This document shows, piece by piece, positions 1 to 39,073 of a stretch of 64,000 nucleotides of DNA. Numbering within the stretch: position 1 is the stretch's first letter; every line of letters starts with the position of its first letter. The DNA is from an uncultured beta proteobacterium (lineage in GTDB: Bacteria; Pseudomonadota; Gammaproteobacteria; Burkholderiales; Burkholderiaceae_C): the NCBI GenBank assembly GCA_903828665.1, contig CAIKMZ010000064.1, positions 1 through 64,000 on the forward strand, written 5' to 3'. The translations under genes and the position numbers were made by a program. Under the pieces are notes generated by a model. The model saw only the letters and a program-made list of their open reading frames with translations. It was not told where the DNA came from and searched no databases.

Positions 1-123
1 GTATCCATCAGAGGATCCACCTCGATTGCTCGAAGTCTCTTCCTGAACAACGGCTGTTCATGCTCCTGGCGTTCAACGCTCTCCTGTTTATCCCCAGTGG
101 GGAGGGAGGCATCCATAGCATCT
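1..123 (-). mobile_element. Terminal non-coding end of a second, diverged IS110/IS1111-type element; the rest lies left of the window
   Basis: Aligns with 37804-37927 (transposase-upstream end of the complete element). Shared blocks include gtatccatcagaggatccacctcgattgctcgaagtct, acggctgttcatgctc and gggaggcatccatagcatct, with diverged segments between them. Confidence 0.8.
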
Positions 124-31272: not shown

Positions 31273-32967
31273 TTACATCCCGGCGTAATTCGGTCCGCCG
31301 CCGCCCTCTGGCGTGACCCAGACGATGTTTTGCGTAGGGTCCTTGATGTCGCAGGTCTTGCAGTGCACGCAGTTGGCCGCGTTGATCTGCAGTTGGTCGT
31401 TGTTGTCGGCGTCCTTGATGAACTCGTAGACGCCGGCGGGGCAGTAGCGCGCCTCGGGACCTGCGTATTTCGCGAGGTTGATCGACACCGGCACGCTCGC
31501 ATCCCTGAGCGTCAGGTGCGCCGGCTGATTCTCTTCATGGTTGACGTTGCTGATGAAGACGCTCGAGAGGCGGTCGAATGTCAGCTTGCCGTCGGGTTTC
31601 GGGTACTCGATCGGTTCGCACTCTGCAGCCGGCTTCAGGTAGGCGTAGTCGGGCTTGTCACGGTGGATCGTCCACGGCATGTTGCCGCCCAGGCCGAACT
31701 GCTCGAAGCCGTTCATCACGGTGCCGATGCGCAGGCCGTACTTGAACCAGGCCTTGAAGTTGCGCGACTTGTTGAGCTCGGTGTAGACCCAGCTGGCCTC
31801 AAAGGCTTCCGGATAGGCGCTGAGTTCGTCATGCGCGCGTCCGGCGGTCACCGCATCGTAGGCGGCCTCGGCCGCCAGCATGCCGGTCTTGATCGCGGTG
31901 TGCGTGCCCTTGATGCGGCTCACGTTGAGGAAGCCCGCTTCGCAGCCGATCAGCGCGCCGCCCGGGAACACGGTCTTCGGCAGCGACATCAGGCCGCCGG
32001 CCGTGATGGCGCGCGCGCCGTAGGCCAGGCGCTTGGCCGGCTTGAGGCCCTTGTCCTCGCCTTCGAGGTAGTAGCGGATATTGGGATGCGTCTTCCAGCG
32101 CTGGAATTCCTCGAACGGGCTCAGATAGGCGTTGCTGTAGTTCAGGCCGGTGATGAAACCCAGGGCGATCTTGTTGTCTTCCATGTGGTACAGGAAGGAG
32201 CCGCCATAGGTGCTGTTGTCCATCGGCCAGCCCGCGGTGTGCACCACCAGGCCCGGCTCGTGCCGCGCCGGATCGACTTCCCACAGTTCCTTGATGCCGA
32301 TGCCGTAGCTTTGCGGGTCGCAGCCTTCGTCAAGCTTGTATTTTTCGATGAGCTGGCGGCCCAGGTGGCCGCGCGAGCCTTCTGCAAAGATCGTGTACTT
32401 GGCCAGCAGCTCCATGCCGATCTGGAAGGCCTCGCCCGGTTCGCCTTCCTTGTTGATGCCCATGTTGCCGGTGGCCACGCCCTTGACCGAGCCGTTCTCG
32501 TTATAGAGCACTTCCGCCGCGGGAAAGCCGGGGAAGATCTCCACGCCCAGGCTCTCCGCCTGGGTTGCGAGCCAGCGTGTCAGCGCACCCAGGCTGATGA
32601 TGTAGTTGCCATGGTTCTGGCTGCACTTGGGCAGCATGAAGTTGGGCGTGCGATAAGCCTTGGTCTCGCTCAGGAACATCATCGCTTCATCGGTGACCGG
32701 CTGATTGAGCGGTGCGCCCATGGCCTTCCAGTTGGGGAACAGTTCGTTGAGCGAGATCGGGTCGAGCACCGCGCCCGACAGGATGTGGGCGCCGGGCTCC
32801 GATCCCTTTTCCAGCACGACGACGGAAACGTCCGTGCCTTTCTCGGCGGCCAGCTGCTTGAGCCGGATCGCGGTGGACAGACCGGCAGGGCCGCCGCCGA
32901 CGACGACCACGTCGTACTCCATTGCTTCTCGGGGGCCGAACTGGGACAGAATTTCCTCGTTTGTCAT
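31273..32967 (-). CDS. Electron transfer flavoprotein-ubiquinone oxidoreductase
   Basis: FAD motif VVVVGGGPAGLSTAIRLKQ; C-terminal 4Fe-4S CVHCKTCDIKDPTQNIVWVTPEGGGGP; the 1006-aa ORF is trimmed to the start at 32967. Confidence 0.95.
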   Translation of the reverse strand: MTNEEILSQFGPREAMEYDVVVVGGGPAGLSTAIRLKQLAAEKGTDVSVVVLEKGSEPGAHILSGAVLDPISLNELFPNWKAMGAPLNQPVTDEAMMFLSETKAYRTPNFMLPKCSQNHGNYIISLGALTRWLATQAESLGVEIFPGFPAAEVLYNENGSVKGVATGNMGINKEGEPGEAFQIGMELLAKYTIFAEGSRGHLGRQLIEKYKLDEGCDPQSYGIGIKELWEVDPARHEPGLVVHTAGWPMDNSTYGGSFLYHMEDNKIALGFITGLNYSNAYLSPFEEFQRWKTHPNIRYYLEGEDKGLKPAKRLAYGARAITAGGLMSLPKTVFPGGALIGCEAGFLNVSRIKGTHTAIKTGMLAAEAAYDAVTAGRAHDELSAYPEAFEASWVYTELNKSRNFKAWFKYGLRIGTVMNGFEQFGLGGNMPWTIHRDKPDYAYLKPAAECEPIEYPKPDGKLTFDRLSSVFISNVNHEENQPAHLTLRDASVPVSINLAKYAGPEARYCPAGVYEFIKDADNNDQLQINAANCVHCKTCDIKDPTQNIVWVTPEGGGGPNYAGM

Positions 32968-33102
32968 GGGTTTTCTCGCTTGATAATGGGAGCCTGGTTC
33001 CGAAGGGGACCGCGACCGGGGATTGTCGAACGCGTGACTGATTTTATGCGTTGAATTGACATAATCCCGTGGTCGATCTTTCAATTCATGGAGACTCTCG
33101 TA

Positions 33103-33885
33103 ATGGCTTACAGCATTGATCTTTCCGGCCGGGTGGCCTTTGTCACCGGTGCTTCCAGTGGTTTGGGCGCGCAGTTCGCCAAGACCCTGTCCCGCGCCGG
33201 TGCCGCTGTGGTGCTGGCGAGTCGCCGTGTCGAGCGGCTCAAGGATTTGCGCGCTGAAATTGACGGCGAGGGCGGTGACGCGCACGTCATCGAACTCGAT
33301 GTGACCGACATCGACTCCATCAAGTCCGCCGTCGCGCACGCCGAGACGGAAGTCGGCTCGATCGACATCCTGGTCAACAACTCGGGGGTCAGCACGACGC
33401 AGCGCATCCAGGACGTCGCCGAGGAAGATTACGACTTCATCTTCGATACCAATGTCAAGGGCGCCTTCTTCGTGGCGCAGGAAGTCGGCAAGCGCATGCT
33501 GGCGCGCGCGCAAGGGTCGGCGCCCGGCACCTACACCGGCGGGCGCATCGTCAACATTGCCTCCATGGGCGGCCTGCGCGTGCTGCCGCAGATCGGCGTC
33601 TATTGCATGAGCAAGTCGGCGGTGGTGCACATGACCAAGGCGATGGCAGCCGAGTGGGGTCGCTTCGGCATCAACGTCAACGCCATCTGTCCGGGCTATA
33701 TCGACACCGAGATCAACCACCACCACTGGCAGACCGAACAGGGCCGCAAGCTGGTGCAGATGCTGCCGCGCCGGCGCCTGGGACAACCGGCAGATCTTGA
33801 TGCCGTGCTGGTGATGCTGTGTTCCGACGAGAGCCGTTTCATCAATGGTGCCGTGATCGCGGCGGACGACGGTTTCGGCGTCTGA
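33103..33885 (+). CDS. SDR family oxidoreductase
   Basis: TGASSGLGAQ, NNSG, YCMSK motifs; ATG at 33103 preceded by GGAG. Confidence 0.93.
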   Translation: MAYSIDLSGRVAFVTGASSGLGAQFAKTLSRAGAAVVLASRRVERLKDLRAEIDGEGGDAHVIELDVTDIDSIKSAVAHAETEVGSIDILVNNSGVSTTQRIQDVAEEDYDFIFDTNVKGAFFVAQEVGKRMLARAQGSAPGTYTGGRIVNIASMGGLRVLPQIGVYCMSKSAVVHMTKAMAAEWGRFGINVNAICPGYIDTEINHHHWQTEQGRKLVQMLPRRRLGQPADLDAVLVMLCSDESRFINGAVIAADDGFGV

Positions 33886-34773
33886 GTGCGTAAGGGGATC
33901 GCCGCGGGGCTCGCGGCCGGCGCGCTCTGGGGCCTGGTGTTTGTGGCGCCGCGCATGACGGCGGGCTTGTCGTCGGTCGATCTGACGGCCGGGCGCTTCG
34001 TCAGCTATGGCGCGATCTCGGCGCTCATGATGGGGCTGCGCACCCGGCCGCTGCCGACGCCGGCGCAAGCCGTTTTCGCGCTCGGCATGAGCGTGCTGGG
34101 CTTCACCGGCTACTACCTGCTGATCGTGCTGGCCGTGCACGACATCGGCACGGCATTGCCGACGCTGATCATCGGCACCATTCCACTGTGGCTGATGCTG
34201 CTGGCCAAGCCGCACGGCCTGCGCTGGCTGGCGCTGGCCCCGGGATTGACCCTGACCGCGGCGGGCCTGCTGTTGATGATGGACATCACGCACGCCGCGT
34301 CCGTCGCGAACGCGAGCGCCTTCTACTGGCGCGGCATCGGCCTGGCGCTGCTGGCGATGCTGAGTTGGACGGTGTTTGCCTTGCTCAATTCAGCCTGGCT
34401 CAAACGCCACCCGGAAGTCGACGCCACGGATTGGGCCAACTGGCTCGGTCTGGCCACCGGTGTCGGCGCGCTGGCCTTGTGGCTGGCGGCGGGAAGCGAC
34501 GCCAGTGTGCTGTTGCGCGTGGACCGGGGCTGGCGCGTGGCGCTGGTTTGCGTTGCCACCGGCATCGGTTCGGCCTGGGGCGCGACCATTTTGTGGAACG
34601 TCGCCAGTCAGCGCCTGAGCGCCAGCCTGTGCGGCCAGTTGATCGTGAGCGAGACGCTGTTCGCGCTGCTTTATTCCTTTGCCTGGGACGGCGTCTGGCC
34701 CGGCGCAATGCAGGCCGCCGCCGCCGTGCTGTTCACGCTCGGCATCATGGCTTCGATCCGGGCACATCAATGA
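33886..34773 (+). CDS. EamA/DMT family transporter
   Basis: Hydrophobic ~10-TM protein; GTG start. Confidence 0.85.
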   Translation: MRKGIAAGLAAGALWGLVFVAPRMTAGLSSVDLTAGRFVSYGAISALMMGLRTRPLPTPAQAVFALGMSVLGFTGYYLLIVLAVHDIGTALPTLIIGTIPLWLMLLAKPHGLRWLALAPGLTLTAAGLLLMMDITHAASVANASAFYWRGIGLALLAMLSWTVFALLNSAWLKRHPEVDATDWANWLGLATGVGALALWLAAGSDASVLLRVDRGWRVALVCVATGIGSAWGATILWNVASQRLSASLCGQLIVSETLFALLYSFAWDGVWPGAMQAAAAVLFTLGIMASIRAHQ

Positions 34774-35778: not shown

Positions 35779-36351
35779 CTATTTCACCTTCGGCACGCGC
35801 CCCATCAGGTAGAACTCGGGGTTGGGCAGCATGTTGCTGAAGGATGCCATGCGGTTGGACAGGCCGAAGAAGGCCGTGATCGCGGCGATGTCCCAGGCGT
35901 CCTCGTCGCTGAAGCCGTGCGCCTGCAGCGCGGCAAAGTCTTCGTCGCCGATCTCGTCGGACTTCAGGCAGACCTTGAGTGCGAAGTCGAGCATGGCGCG
36001 CTGGCGCGGCGTGATGTCGGCCTTGCGGTGGTTCACGGCCACCTGATCGGCGACCAGTGGCTTCTTCTCGTAGATGCGCAGGATGGCACCGTGCGCGATC
36101 ACGCAGTACAGGCATTTGTTGGCGGCGCTGGTCGTGGTGACGATCATCTCGCGGTCGCCCTTGGACAGGCCCGAGTCTTCCTTGAGCATCAGGGCGTCGT
36201 GGTAGGCAAAGAAGGCGCGCCATTCGGCGGGCCGGCGCGCCAGCGCCAGAAAAACGTTGGGCACAAAGCCCGATTTGGCCTGCACTTCGAGGATTTTGGT
36301 GCGGATGTCGTCGGGCAGGTCCTTGAGTTCCGGAAGCGGGTAGCGGGCCAT
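35779..36351 (-). CDS. Peroxidase-related / AhpD-like (carboxymuconolactone decarboxylase fold) protein
   Basis: MARYPLPELKDLPDDIRTKILEVQAKSGFVPNVFLALARRP; CLYCVIAH motif. Confidence 0.88.
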   Translation of the reverse strand: MARYPLPELKDLPDDIRTKILEVQAKSGFVPNVFLALARRPAEWRAFFAYHDALMLKEDSGLSKGDREMIVTTTSAANKCLYCVIAHGAILRIYEKKPLVADQVAVNHRKADITPRQRAMLDFALKVCLKSDEIGDEDFAALQAHGFSDEDAWDIAAITAFFGLSNRMASFSNMLPNPEFYLMGRVPKVK

Positions 36352-36358
36352 GGTGACT

Positions 36359-36665
36359 TATATGGATGCCTCCCGGGTAGCAAGAAGAATTTGTGTCGTG
36401 TTGCGAAGAAGTCGGCTGCTCACTTATATCCGGCCTTGATTGCGTGGTCCGCCTGATTTCCCAGACTCGCCCGCTGGCCCCGATGCATATCCGCTGACAA
36501 GCGCCTCATCTCCTGGATCGGACTGTTTATGTCCTTGCCACCATGCAGGTTTAGCTCGCCCCGGTCTGACCTGTTTCACATCACTTCACTCTTTACTGCC
36601 TCACTACCCTACAAAGACTGACCATATCCTTTCAAAGGTTGGTTGATAAAGTGGCTTTTTGTTTG
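36359..36665 (-). other. Long non-coding end 3' of the transposase; candidate bridge RNA/seekRNA region
   Basis: About 305 nt with no plausible ORF between transposase stop and element end; IS1111-group elements are reported to carry their guide RNA on this side. Confidence 0.45.
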
Positions 36666-37742
36666 TCATGCCGCAAGCGGTCTGACGCTCTTGAAGCCCC
36701 GTTGGTAATCTTGATCTTTGGCCGTTACGGCCCAAATTGTTCGTGCCATCTTGGCCGCCTGCGCCACGATTACTACGCTGGCTGGTCTGCGCGCCTTGAT
36801 TTGCTCCAGCCACGGGCCGCGCTCTTTGGCATGGGCCAGGACACTTCGGGCTCCGTGAATAAGCAGGGTGCGCATGTAGGTGTCACCGCGCTTGGAGATG
36901 CCCCCCAGGCGGACTTTGCCGCCTGTACCTGTTTGCTTGGGCACCAATCCCAGCCAGGCGCAGAATTCACGCCCGGACTTGAAGGCGCTGGCCTCACCCA
37001 TGGTGGCTATTGCCGCCGTGGCCGTGAGCAAGCCCACTCCGGGGATTTGGGCGATGCGCTGCATTTGCGGGTCTGCCTTGAGTTGCAGTCCCAGGCGTTT
37101 CTCAATGGCGAGCATGTCCTCGCTCATGGCCTTGATGCGTGCGACTTGTTCGCGCAGGCTGTCTCTGAGCATTTGTGGCAGTTGCACTGCGAGCTCTTCC
37201 AATGTCTGCTCAATGTCTTTGAACAAAGCTTTTTGCCCTTGGACAAAAGTGACACCGAATTCGTACAGCAACCCGCGCAAAGCATTGGTCTGCATGGTGC
37301 GCATCTTCATCAGGAGCTCGCGTTGGCGGTGCAGGGTGAGCGTGGCTTGCTGCGCTGCGGTCTTGATACCGACAAACTTAACGCCCGGCTGCTGCACCGC
37401 CAGCCAGATGGCTCGGGCGTCCGTCGCATCGGTCTTGTTGCCACTCACAAAGGGGCGAACAATCTTGGCGTGCAATAGCCGCACGCTGTGGCCTTGGGCG
37501 CTGAGCTCGCGGGCCCAGTGGTGTGCTCCGCCACAGGCCTCGATCGCAATCAGGCAAGGCTGTTTATTGGCAAAGTGCTCCAGAACCTTGGCACGTTTGA
37601 TCTGCACGTTGACGATTTCACCCGTGCCCATATCCACCGTGTGCAGTTGAAACACGTGTTTGGCGATGTCCAGCCCAATGACTTGCATGCCATTTACGGT
37701 GCCGATGATTTGTCCTGCGCTCATTCCTGTATTACGATTCAT
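36666..37742 (-). CDS. IS110-family transposase (DEDD/RuvC-like with transposase_20 domain)
   Basis: MQVIGLDIAKHVFQLHTVD...IEACGGAHHWARELSAQGHSVRLLHAKIVRPFVSGNKTDATDARAI...IPGVGLLTATAAIATMG; start set at 37742. Confidence 0.95.
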   Translation of the reverse strand: MNRNTGMSAGQIIGTVNGMQVIGLDIAKHVFQLHTVDMGTGEIVNVQIKRAKVLEHFANKQPCLIAIEACGGAHHWARELSAQGHSVRLLHAKIVRPFVSGNKTDATDARAIWLAVQQPGVKFVGIKTAAQQATLTLHRQRELLMKMRTMQTNALRGLLYEFGVTFVQGQKALFKDIEQTLEELAVQLPQMLRDSLREQVARIKAMSEDMLAIEKRLGLQLKADPQMQRIAQIPGVGLLTATAAIATMGEASAFKSGREFCAWLGLVPKQTGTGGKVRLGGISKRGDTYMRTLLIHGARSVLAHAKERGPWLEQIKARRPASVVIVAQAAKMARTIWAVTAKDQDYQRGFKSVRPLAA

Positions 37743-37824
37743 GGCGGATCCTCTATGGTGTTTGTGAAAACTGCTGTTTATCACGCCTGGGCACTTTGAT
37801 GCCGTATCCATCAGAGGATCCACC
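37743..37824 (-). other. Long inverted repeat pairing with the transposase ribosome-binding site
   Basis: ggcggatcctctatgg (37743-37758) and ccatcagaggatccacc (37808-37824); near-perfect 16-bp pairing with one bulge. Confidence 0.7.
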
Positions 37825-37994
37825 TCGATTGCTCGAAGTCTCGCTTCCTGATAGACGGCTGTTCATGCTCTTGGCGTTCAGCGGTCTCAATTCCTTGCCC
37901 GTGGGCAGGGAGGCATCCATAGCATCTGCTGATTGTTCGTATTTGCCATTATGCTGTGCCATTCTGAAAGCACGATCAAGCGACAATCCCCAAC

Positions 37995-38372
37995 ATGAAC
38001 TCACAATTTGACAAAGGCCTGGCGCGGCGCAAGCAGGTCATGGGCGAAGATTTCGTGGCCAATGCCTTCGGCAAGGCCACCGATTTCACGCTGCCGATGC
38101 AGCACTACATCACGAAGAACGCCTGGGGCGATGTCTGGCAGCGCGAGGGGCTCGATCTGAAGACGCGCAGCCTGATCACGGTGGCCATGCTGACCGCGCT
38201 GGGCAAGCAGCACGAGCTCAAGGGCCATGTGCGCGGTGCGCTGAACAATGGCGCCAGCGTCGCTGAAATTCAGGAAGTGCTGCTGCATGCCAGCATCTAT
38301 TGCGGCGTGCCGTCGGCGGTCGAGGCCTTTCGTTCGGCGGCGGAAGTCGTCGACGGCCCCGGCAAAGCATGA
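37995..38372 (+). CDS. Carboxymuconolactone decarboxylase family protein (PcaC-like)
   Basis: MNSQFDKGLARRKQVMGEDFVANAFGKATDFTLPMQ...AMLTALGKQHELKGHVRGALNNG. Confidence 0.9.
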   Translation: MNSQFDKGLARRKQVMGEDFVANAFGKATDFTLPMQHYITKNAWGDVWQREGLDLKTRSLITVAMLTALGKQHELKGHVRGALNNGASVAEIQEVLLHASIYCGVPSAVEAFRSAAEVVDGPGKA

Positions 38373-38947
38373 TGGAAGCGCTGTTCGTATCGACCGGCGT
38401 CGTCGCGCTGGCCGAGATCGGCGACAAGACACAGTTGCTCGCCTTCATCCTGGCGGCGCGTTTCAAGAAGCCGGTTCCCATCATTGCCGGCATCCTGTGC
38501 GCGACGCTCGTCAATCACGGCCTGGCCGGCGCGCTCGGCGCCTGGATCACCTCGGTCGTGAGCCCCGAGGTCATGCGCTGGGTGCTGGGCCTGTCGTTCA
38601 TCGCGATGGCGGCCTGGACGCTGATCCCCGACAAGATCGAGGAAGAGGAAACGCAGGTGGCAAAACACATGGGCGTCTTCGGCGCCACGCTGATCACGTT
38701 CTTCCTCGCCGAGATGGGCGACAAGACCCAGATCGCCACGGTGGCACTCGCAGCCCACTACGGCAACCCGCTGCTCGTGGTGCTGGGGACAACGCTGGGC
38801 ATGCTGCTGGCCGATGTGCCCGCTGTGTTCGTCGGCAACCGCTTTGCCGCGAAGATTCCCATGAAACTGGTGCACTCCATCGCCGCCGGCATCTTTGCGC
38901 TGATGGGCGTGCTGACGCTGTTCAAGGTCGAGAAACTGTTTCAGTAG
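38369..38947 (+). CDS. TMEM165/GDT1 (UPF0016) family membrane protein, putative Mn/Ca transporter
   Basis: Two ExGDKTQ motifs (AEIGDKTQLLAF, AEMGDKTQIATV); overlaps the previous stop. Confidence 0.92.
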   Translation: MMEALFVSTGVVALAEIGDKTQLLAFILAARFKKPVPIIAGILCATLVNHGLAGALGAWITSVVSPEVMRWVLGLSFIAMAAWTLIPDKIEEEETQVAKHMGVFGATLITFFLAEMGDKTQIATVALAAHYGNPLLVVLGTTLGMLLADVPAVFVGNRFAAKIPMKLVHSIAAGIFALMGVLTLFKVEKLFQ

Positions 38948-38997: not shown

Positions 38998-39073
38998 TGT
39001 CATGCCGGACTCGATCCGGCATCCACACGACGCGAGCCATGGATTGCGGATCAGGTCCGCAATGACATGCCGG
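38998..39073. repeat. REP-like palindromic repeat pair (site D)
   Basis: tgtcatgccggactcgatccggcatccacac ... ccatggattgcggatcaggtccgcaatgacatgccgg between convergent genes. Confidence 0.75.

What the first reader, a model, noticed from the sequence alone, without database searches (positions are those of the whole stretch)
36357..37927. IS1111-type element with subterminal inverted repeats, CT core and long non-coding ends that could encode a guide (bridge) RNA
Seen directly: IRs TATGGATGCCTCCC/GGGAGGCATCCATA sit 2 nt and 4 nt inside a CT dinucleotide at the two ends, and about 185 nt and 305 nt non-coding ends flank a DEDD-type IS110 transposase. Known: IS110-family recombinases use a structured RNA from a non-coding end to choose target and donor; in the IS1111 group it is reported 3' of the transposase. 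Inference: 36359-36665 is the candidate guide RNA region, and CT is the candidate core. By eye, AATCAG from the target flank (minus strand cgaacAATCAGc) recurs in this end as gggaaAATCAG-like sequence (gggaAATCAGgcgg, about 36449-36463); a 6-mer match can easily be chance.
Basis: partly seen in the sequence, partly recalled or inferred. Interest (0 to 1): 0.7.

Follow-up and report, generated by a model that had tools for sequence, protein, structure and literature searches.

The report
RNA-guided IS1111 element targeting ribosome-binding sites
This is a jumping gene of the IS1111 group whose downstream end encodes a guide (bridge) RNA; comparison with about 55 relatives shows that this RNA spells out the insertion site, usually the gap between a gene's ribosome-binding site and its start codon, and that the guide can sit at several distances from the cut point.

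Summary
The element is real: 14/14 sTIRs, a DEDD/PF02371 transposase, CT at both ends (AG on the transposase strand). A congener's empty site has the same length with one AG, so AG is the core and nothing is duplicated or lost.

The guess of a guide RNA in 36359-36665 is strongly supported. The RNA lies at about 36412-36584 (minus strand). Across 23 distinct RNAs, 13 of 26 pairs show compensatory changes and 98.8% of cells pair. Across 49-56 homologues the two target guides follow each element's own flanks, and the left donor guide its own right end (0 of 20000 shuffles each).

New beyond the finding: (1) in 15 of 21 close relatives an ATG lies 4-7 nt past the core, mostly behind a Shine-Dalgarno, and the guide encodes this site; IS900 (IS110 family) is a precedent for the target class. 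(2) The right guide is anchored on the start codon and its register to the core slides over 4-7 nt, even for identical guides. (3) A sister element in this genome, with the same ends, hits REP palindromes. (4) A covarying leader masks the transposase Shine-Dalgarno. All is sequence inference; no RNA or activity was measured.

The parts
36357..37927 (-). whole element including the CT (AG on the transposase strand) core at both ends; by the 7/3-bp rule for IS1111 ends the IS proper is 36359-37927
36361..36374 (+). subterminal inverted repeat, right end (3' of the transposase)
37908..37921 (-). subterminal inverted repeat, left end (5' of the transposase)
36357..36358 (.). core dinucleotide CT/AG, right end
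   Evidence: empty-site comparison
37926..37927 (.). core dinucleotide CT/AG, left end
   Evidence: empty-site comparison
36666..37742 (-). DEDD transposase/recombinase, 358 aa, with the GL-P----TG motif (GLVPKQTGTG)
36412..36584 (-). conserved bridge/seek RNA region (two guide loops)
   Evidence: RNAalifold and pair counts on 23 distinct RNAs
36535..36545 (-). right target guide (RTG) CATGGTGGCAA; CATGGTG is complementary to CACCATG of the target top strand
36520..36534 (-). hairpin between the two target guides (GGAC/GTCC)
   Evidence: compensatory changes
36510..36518 (-). left target guide (LTG) ATCCAGGAG, same sense as the target left flank plus core
36482..36489 (-). right donor guide (RDG) TATGCATC, matches the left element end (rc AGCATCT)
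   Evidence: seen by inspection; not tested by shuffling
36423..36431 (-). left donor guide (LDG) GGATATAAG, matches the right element end ATATA+AG
   Evidence: shuffle test
37743..37824 (-). leader RNA structure that pairs the transposase Shine-Dalgarno (AGAGGATCC) with GGATCCTCT
   Evidence: (z -5.97)
35779..36351 (-). target gene, peroxidase-related (AhpD-like) enzyme; its ATG lies 5 nt from the core, in the same direction as the transposase
1..123 (-). left end of a sister element (86% identical here) that targets REP palindromes; the rest is beyond the contig end

Best explanation
An IS1111-group insertion sequence. Its transposase is expected to form a complex with a bridge/seek RNA made from the right non-coding end. 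Four short guides in two internal loops pair with the target on both sides of an AG core and with the joined element ends, directing insertion at AG. In this clade most guides encode a translation-initiation region: the left guide reads as a Shine-Dalgarno (AGGAG) and the right guide is complementary to the bases before and including ATG, so the element lands between ribosome-binding site and start codon, reading the same way as the gene. The right guide is anchored on the ATG side and its register to the core is not fixed (4-7 nt). Shown by sequence comparison: ends, core, conserved RNA structure, guide-flank co-variation, target class, variable register. Inferred: that the RNA is made, bound and used.
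For: Guides versus own flanks, homologues with repeated guides removed: RTG 6.56 of 10 against 4.03 (sd 0.16) shuffled, n=55; LTG 6.10 of 7 against 3.22 (sd 0.17), n=49; 0 of 20000 shuffles for either, and a sliding control in the 21 close relatives peaks only at the RTG. LDG versus right element end 6.62 of 7 against 5.61 (sd 0.10), 0 of 20000, n=56. Without the ATG, the bases between ATG and core still follow the own guide: 0.91 against 0.56 (sd 0.05), n=15. RNA: 13 of 26 pairs with compensatory change, 98.8% paired against 88.3% shuffled and at most 41% when slid. Target: ATG 4-7 nt from the core in 15/21 against 6.8% background; GGAG at the core in 10/17 against 5.5%. Empty site ACGAACAACCTGG-AG-ACACC-ATG in congener L170. 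Register: 7.68 of 10 when anchored on ATG against at most 4.03 for any fixed register, n=34; identical guides used at two spacings, L067/L109 and L101/L103.
Against: No transcript or activity data. The window RNA alone does not fold better than shuffles (z +0.40); the structure rests on comparison. The window's own matches are middling (RTG 7/10; LTG about 5/7; flank GCAG instead of GGAG), although the congener's empty site matches the LTG better. Six of 21 close relatives sit elsewhere, and some that count as ATG sites (such as L064) may be REP-like. Related elements are not fully independent; orthologous insertions and repeated guides were removed by hand. Register and RDG alignment were chosen after looking at the data.
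Confidence: 0.9

Rival explanations
1. The right end is only a recognition end or untranslated tail; the guide-flank matches reflect shared ancestry of element and site rather than guiding.
For: Close relatives share both guide and target type; single-sequence fold is not exceptional.
Against: Sites are in different genes; repeated guides and orthologous insertions were removed; close relatives with nearly the same scaffold but different targets (L021, L063, L064, L182) have guides changed to match; the sliding control shows a peak only at the guide.
Confidence: 0.04
2. Targeting of ribosome-binding sites is not encoded by the guide: the transposase prefers AG in purine-rich or transcribed 5' regions, and matches to SD/ATG follow from composition.
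For: SD and ATG are common to most sites.
Against: With ATG excluded, the variable bases between ATG and core still follow each element's own guide; REP-type targets come with REP-type guides (L182 ATCCCGGAC/GATCAAG); background AG sites have ATG at 4-7 nt in only 6.8%.
Confidence: 0.05
3. The sliding register is an artefact: the guide has one fixed register, and small insertions or deletions arose between core and ATG after insertion.
For: The start codon is under selection while the bases next to the inserted element are not; the window flank differs from the congener's site at both core-adjacent positions.
Against: In every gap class (4, 5, 6, 7 nt) the bases up to the core match contiguously at the shifted register (7.0-8.1 of 10) and at no other; the empty site has the same 5-nt gap as the window.
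Confidence: 0.15

Closest known systems
IS1111-group elements with seekRNA (ISEc11, ISXne4, ISKpn4, ISPst6, ISPa11; PMC11187229)
   Same: sTIR, 7-bp and 3-bp terminal extensions, longer non-coding region 3' of the transposase, top-strand complement 5' of the bottom-strand match, natural re-direction between relatives, REP targets (ISPa11)
   Different: Here most targets are Shine-Dalgarno/start-codon regions and the right guide's register to the core varies; a word search of that paper's main text for spacing and distance found nothing on this. No experiment was done here.
IS621 bridge RNA / IS110 group (PMC11208160, PMC11208158)
   Same: Bispecific RNA with target and donor loops, each guide covering the core; CT core (here AG on the transposase strand, CT on the other)
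   Different: RNA in the right end instead of the left; long sTIR; sequence similarity to IS621/ISCro4 transposases only about E 1e-6, over the C-terminal half
IS900 of Mycobacterium avium subsp. paratuberculosis (PMC8141618; Doran 1997 as cited there)
   Same: Targets translation-initiation signals; its motif CATGNNNNNNTCTCCTT reads AAGGAGANNNNNNCATG on the other strand, the same SD-gap-ATG layout
   Different: IS900 was not compared by sequence here; the spacing in its motif is fixed at six, and no guide RNA is described in the passages read

Membership tests
IS1111 group | DEDD transposase with PF02371 C-terminal domain and GL-P----S/TG motif | tested here: met
   motif GLVPKQTGTG read in the ORF
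IS1111 group | subterminal inverted repeats of about 11-13 bp, perfect or nearly so | tested here: met
   14/14
IS1111 group | terminal extensions of 7 bp (left) and 3 bp (right) outside the sTIR | tested here: met
   AGATGCT and ATA around ATGGATGCC...; used for all homologues
IS1111 group | longer non-coding region downstream of the transposase gene | tested here: met
   307 nt versus 185 nt including extensions
IS1111 group | insertion at a specific site in one orientation without target duplication | tested here: met
   empty site in L170; same orientation in relatives
IS1111 group | guide order: complement of the top strand before match of the bottom strand | tested here: met
   RTG 36535-36545 precedes LTG 36510-36518 on the minus strand
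IS1111 group | RNA from the non-coding region co-purifies with the transposase and is needed for movement; circular intermediate | not testable with these tools
   needs an experiment
IS110 group proper (IS110, IS621, IS492) | guide RNA upstream of the transposase, no or very short sTIR | tested here: not met
   guides are 3' of the gene and sTIR is 14 bp
IS900-like targeting | insertion between Shine-Dalgarno and start codon | tested here: met
   15/21 close relatives with ATG 4-7 nt from the core; this concerns target choice, not descent
known Rfam RNA family | match above gathering score | tested here: not met
   one sub-threshold hit in 35900-38400, E 0.16

The most novel reading that the evidence does not exclude
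In this IS1111 clade the target guide is measured from the start codon, not from the cut site: a constant SD half and a constant CAT anchor, with a 4-7-nt stretch whose register to the core slides. Because thousands of genes offer SD-gap-ATG, drifting guides would always find new sites, so the translation-start layout would act as an evolvable platform from which guides also switch to REP palindromes (TCAAG-6 nt-ATG). The SD-masking leader would keep the element quiet inside the transcribed 5' UTRs it selects.
Probability: 0.35. Interest if true: 0.7.

Novelty: new variant of a known kind. Interest (0 to 1): 0.5.

Why it matters
Natural bridge RNAs are being developed as programmable recombinases. 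A clade whose guides encode Shine-Dalgarno plus start codon, and tolerate 4-7 nt between the guided sequence and the cut site, would bear on a current assumption of the base-pairing rules (fixed register to the core) and would explain how an RNA-guided element can hit many genes at one functional position. It also gives a natural set of over 50 guide-target pairs for calibrating IS1111 guides, and suggests how IS900 may find its similar sites.

Tried and rejected
Small ORF read from the captured Shine-Dalgarno into the left end (MDASLPTG..., 55 codons, stopping just before the transposase): not conserved, the frame ends after 8-46 codons in relatives. Outward promoter at the right end (TTGCTA-15-TATAAG): not called by the promoter scan, otherwise untested. 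Sister element's own guide RNA: only the ends are assembled in this genome; a search for its predicted guide found only REP-type and unrelated sequences. CAGGT/ACCTG pairing in the RNA: not kept in all relatives and not used. Viral contigs and phages added only distant relatives. AlphaFold was not run: family and motifs were already clear.

Full report
What is there. The element spans 36357-37927, with its transposase on the minus strand (36666-37742). The inverted repeats are perfect over 14 nt and lie inside CT dinucleotides at both ends. The protein is an IS110-family RNA-guided transposase by NCBIfam and carries both Pfam domains; its C-terminal half resembles the solved IS621 and ISCro4 enzymes. 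The host genus is probably Rhodoferax: a junction identical to L070 (titled Rhodoferax ferrireducens isolate) recurs in a genome of the window's own genus (L178); this is inference.

Ends and core. Written in transposase orientation the ends are AG-ATGC-TATGGATGCCTCCC ... GGGAGGCATCCATA-TA-AG. This fits the 7-bp and 3-bp extension rule given for IS1111 elements in PMC11187229. The orthologous empty site in a congener, L170, reads ACGAACAACCTGG-AG-ACACC-ATG, against ACGAACAATCAGC-AG / AG-TCACC-ATG around the element: the same length with one AG. The core is therefore AG (CT on the other strand), and no target duplication or loss occurred.

Where it sits. The element lies between the Shine-Dalgarno position and the start codon of a peroxidase-related gene (35779-36351), in the same direction as that gene. 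Of 21 close relatives (the window included) with a readable right flank, 15 have ATG 4-7 nt after the core, against 6.8% at other AG dinucleotides in the same sequences, and 10 of 17 left flanks end in GGAG, against 5.5%. In most of these the ATG opens a long reading frame, e.g. 539, 433, 324, 478, 564, 326 and 560 codons. In more distant relatives (about 51-62% transposase identity; Burkholderia, Paraburkholderia, Vibrio, Xenorhabdus and others) 16 of 37 sites have such an ATG.

The guide RNA. MAFFT alignment of the right non-coding ends shows a constant scaffold with two variable stretches. The first (RTG) is complementary to the target top strand right of the core; the second (LTG) equals the target top strand left of and including the core. 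Scored over homologues with repeated guides removed, own-flank matches are 6.56 of 10 (RTG, n=55) and 6.10 of 7 (LTG, n=49), against 4.03 and 3.22 when guides are shuffled among elements, 0 of 20000 shuffles for either; sliding the RTG test along the RNA in the 21 close relatives gives a peak only at the RTG. With ATG left out the excess remains (0.91 against 0.56). Two further stretches match the element ends: LDG versus right end 6.62 of 7 against 5.61 shuffled, and RDG versus left end by inspection only (GCATC with AGCATCT, ACATC with CACATCT, TACATC with TACATCT, GCCATC with GCCATCT).

Structure. RNAalifold on 23 distinct RNAs gives 26 pairs, 13 with compensatory change. With that structure 98.8% of cells pair, against 88.3% shuffled and 22-41% when partners are slid by 1-3 columns. 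Target guides lie on either side of the GGAC/GTCC hairpin, donor guides on either side of the GGCC/GGCC helix, as in a bridge RNA with two loops. The window RNA alone does not fold better than shuffles (z +0.40), so the case rests on comparison.

Sliding register. In 34 elements with ATG, pairing starts at the same place in the RNA (the CAT of the guide) and runs to the core whatever the gap: matches average 7.68 of 10 when anchored on ATG, and at most 4.03 at any fixed register; in each gap class only the matching register fits. Identical or nearly identical guides occur at two spacings: L067 (gap 6) and L109 (gap 5), and L101 and L103. In the parts of PMC11187229 and PMC11208160 that were searched, no such variable spacing was found; absence from these two texts is weak evidence of novelty.

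Sister element and re-direction. The same genome holds 18 readable junctions (nine left, nine right, most at contig ends) of an 83-88% identical sister with the same IRs. The junctions lie in the palindrome GGATTGCGGGTCAAG/CCCGCAATGAC or close variants of it; uninterrupted copies of that palindrome occur 39 times within three mismatches. Its interior is not assembled. A congener's element, L182, has the predicted kind of guide for a similar palindrome (RTG ATCCCGGAC, LTG GATCAAG, target AG-TCCGGG-ATGAC). Thus one scaffold serves SD/ATG and REP targets.

Leader. The left end (37743-37824) folds into a structure that pairs the transposase Shine-Dalgarno with upstream GGATCCTCT (z -5.97). In 19 relatives 95.3% of cells pair, with 7 pairs changed on both sides. 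Since the element enters 5' UTRs in the gene's direction, a likely role is to damp read-through expression; this is inference. A small ORF in the same leader is not conserved.

Comparison with what is known. All IS1111 features that could be tested are met. Bridge/seek RNAs, natural re-direction and REP targets are known for this family (PMC11187229, PMC11208160), and IS900 is known to target translation-initiation signals, with the motif CATGNNNNNNTCTCCTT (PMC8141618). What is added is the link between the two (the guide encodes the SD/start-codon site) and the sliding register. Literature searches for IS1111 elements at ribosome-binding sites found nothing in the held library, which lacks most subscription journals.

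Noticed in passing
window 1-123: The window starts inside the left end of a sister element (86% identical to the window's element here, same IR) inserted in a REP-type palindrome; such ends break many contigs in this genome.
   Followed up: partly
L025 3049-3095, L071 1238-1280, L092 4271-4315: The right end is tandemly duplicated, and the repeated unit runs from an internal copy of the core dinucleotide in the IR (GGG-AG-GCATCCATATA-AG; GG-GA-CGCGTTCATA-GA) to the terminal core, suggesting strand exchange at a pseudo-core; in L092, and partly in L025, the guide matches the flank beyond the duplication.
   Followed up: partly
window 37743-37824 (minus): Conserved cloverleaf-like leader masking the transposase Shine-Dalgarno; the hairpin GGCATCAAAGTGCC or a near copy recurs in more distant relatives such as L126 and L129. 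No Rfam family matches.
   Followed up: partly
window 39041-39066: An uninterrupted copy, with three mismatches, of the REP-type palindrome that is the sister element's target.
   Followed up: no
L105, L108, L120 and L129-L132: Other members of the clade target sites without a start-codon layout: AATGTCTTG-type sites in the first group and CTAG-containing sites in L129-L132, with matching guides.
   Followed up: no
L070 (and L178): A relative sits in front of an intact 564-codon gene whose start (MTNQEILAQFGPREA) resembles a protein also encoded in the window within 31273-34293 (MTNEEILSQFGPREA).
   Followed up: no
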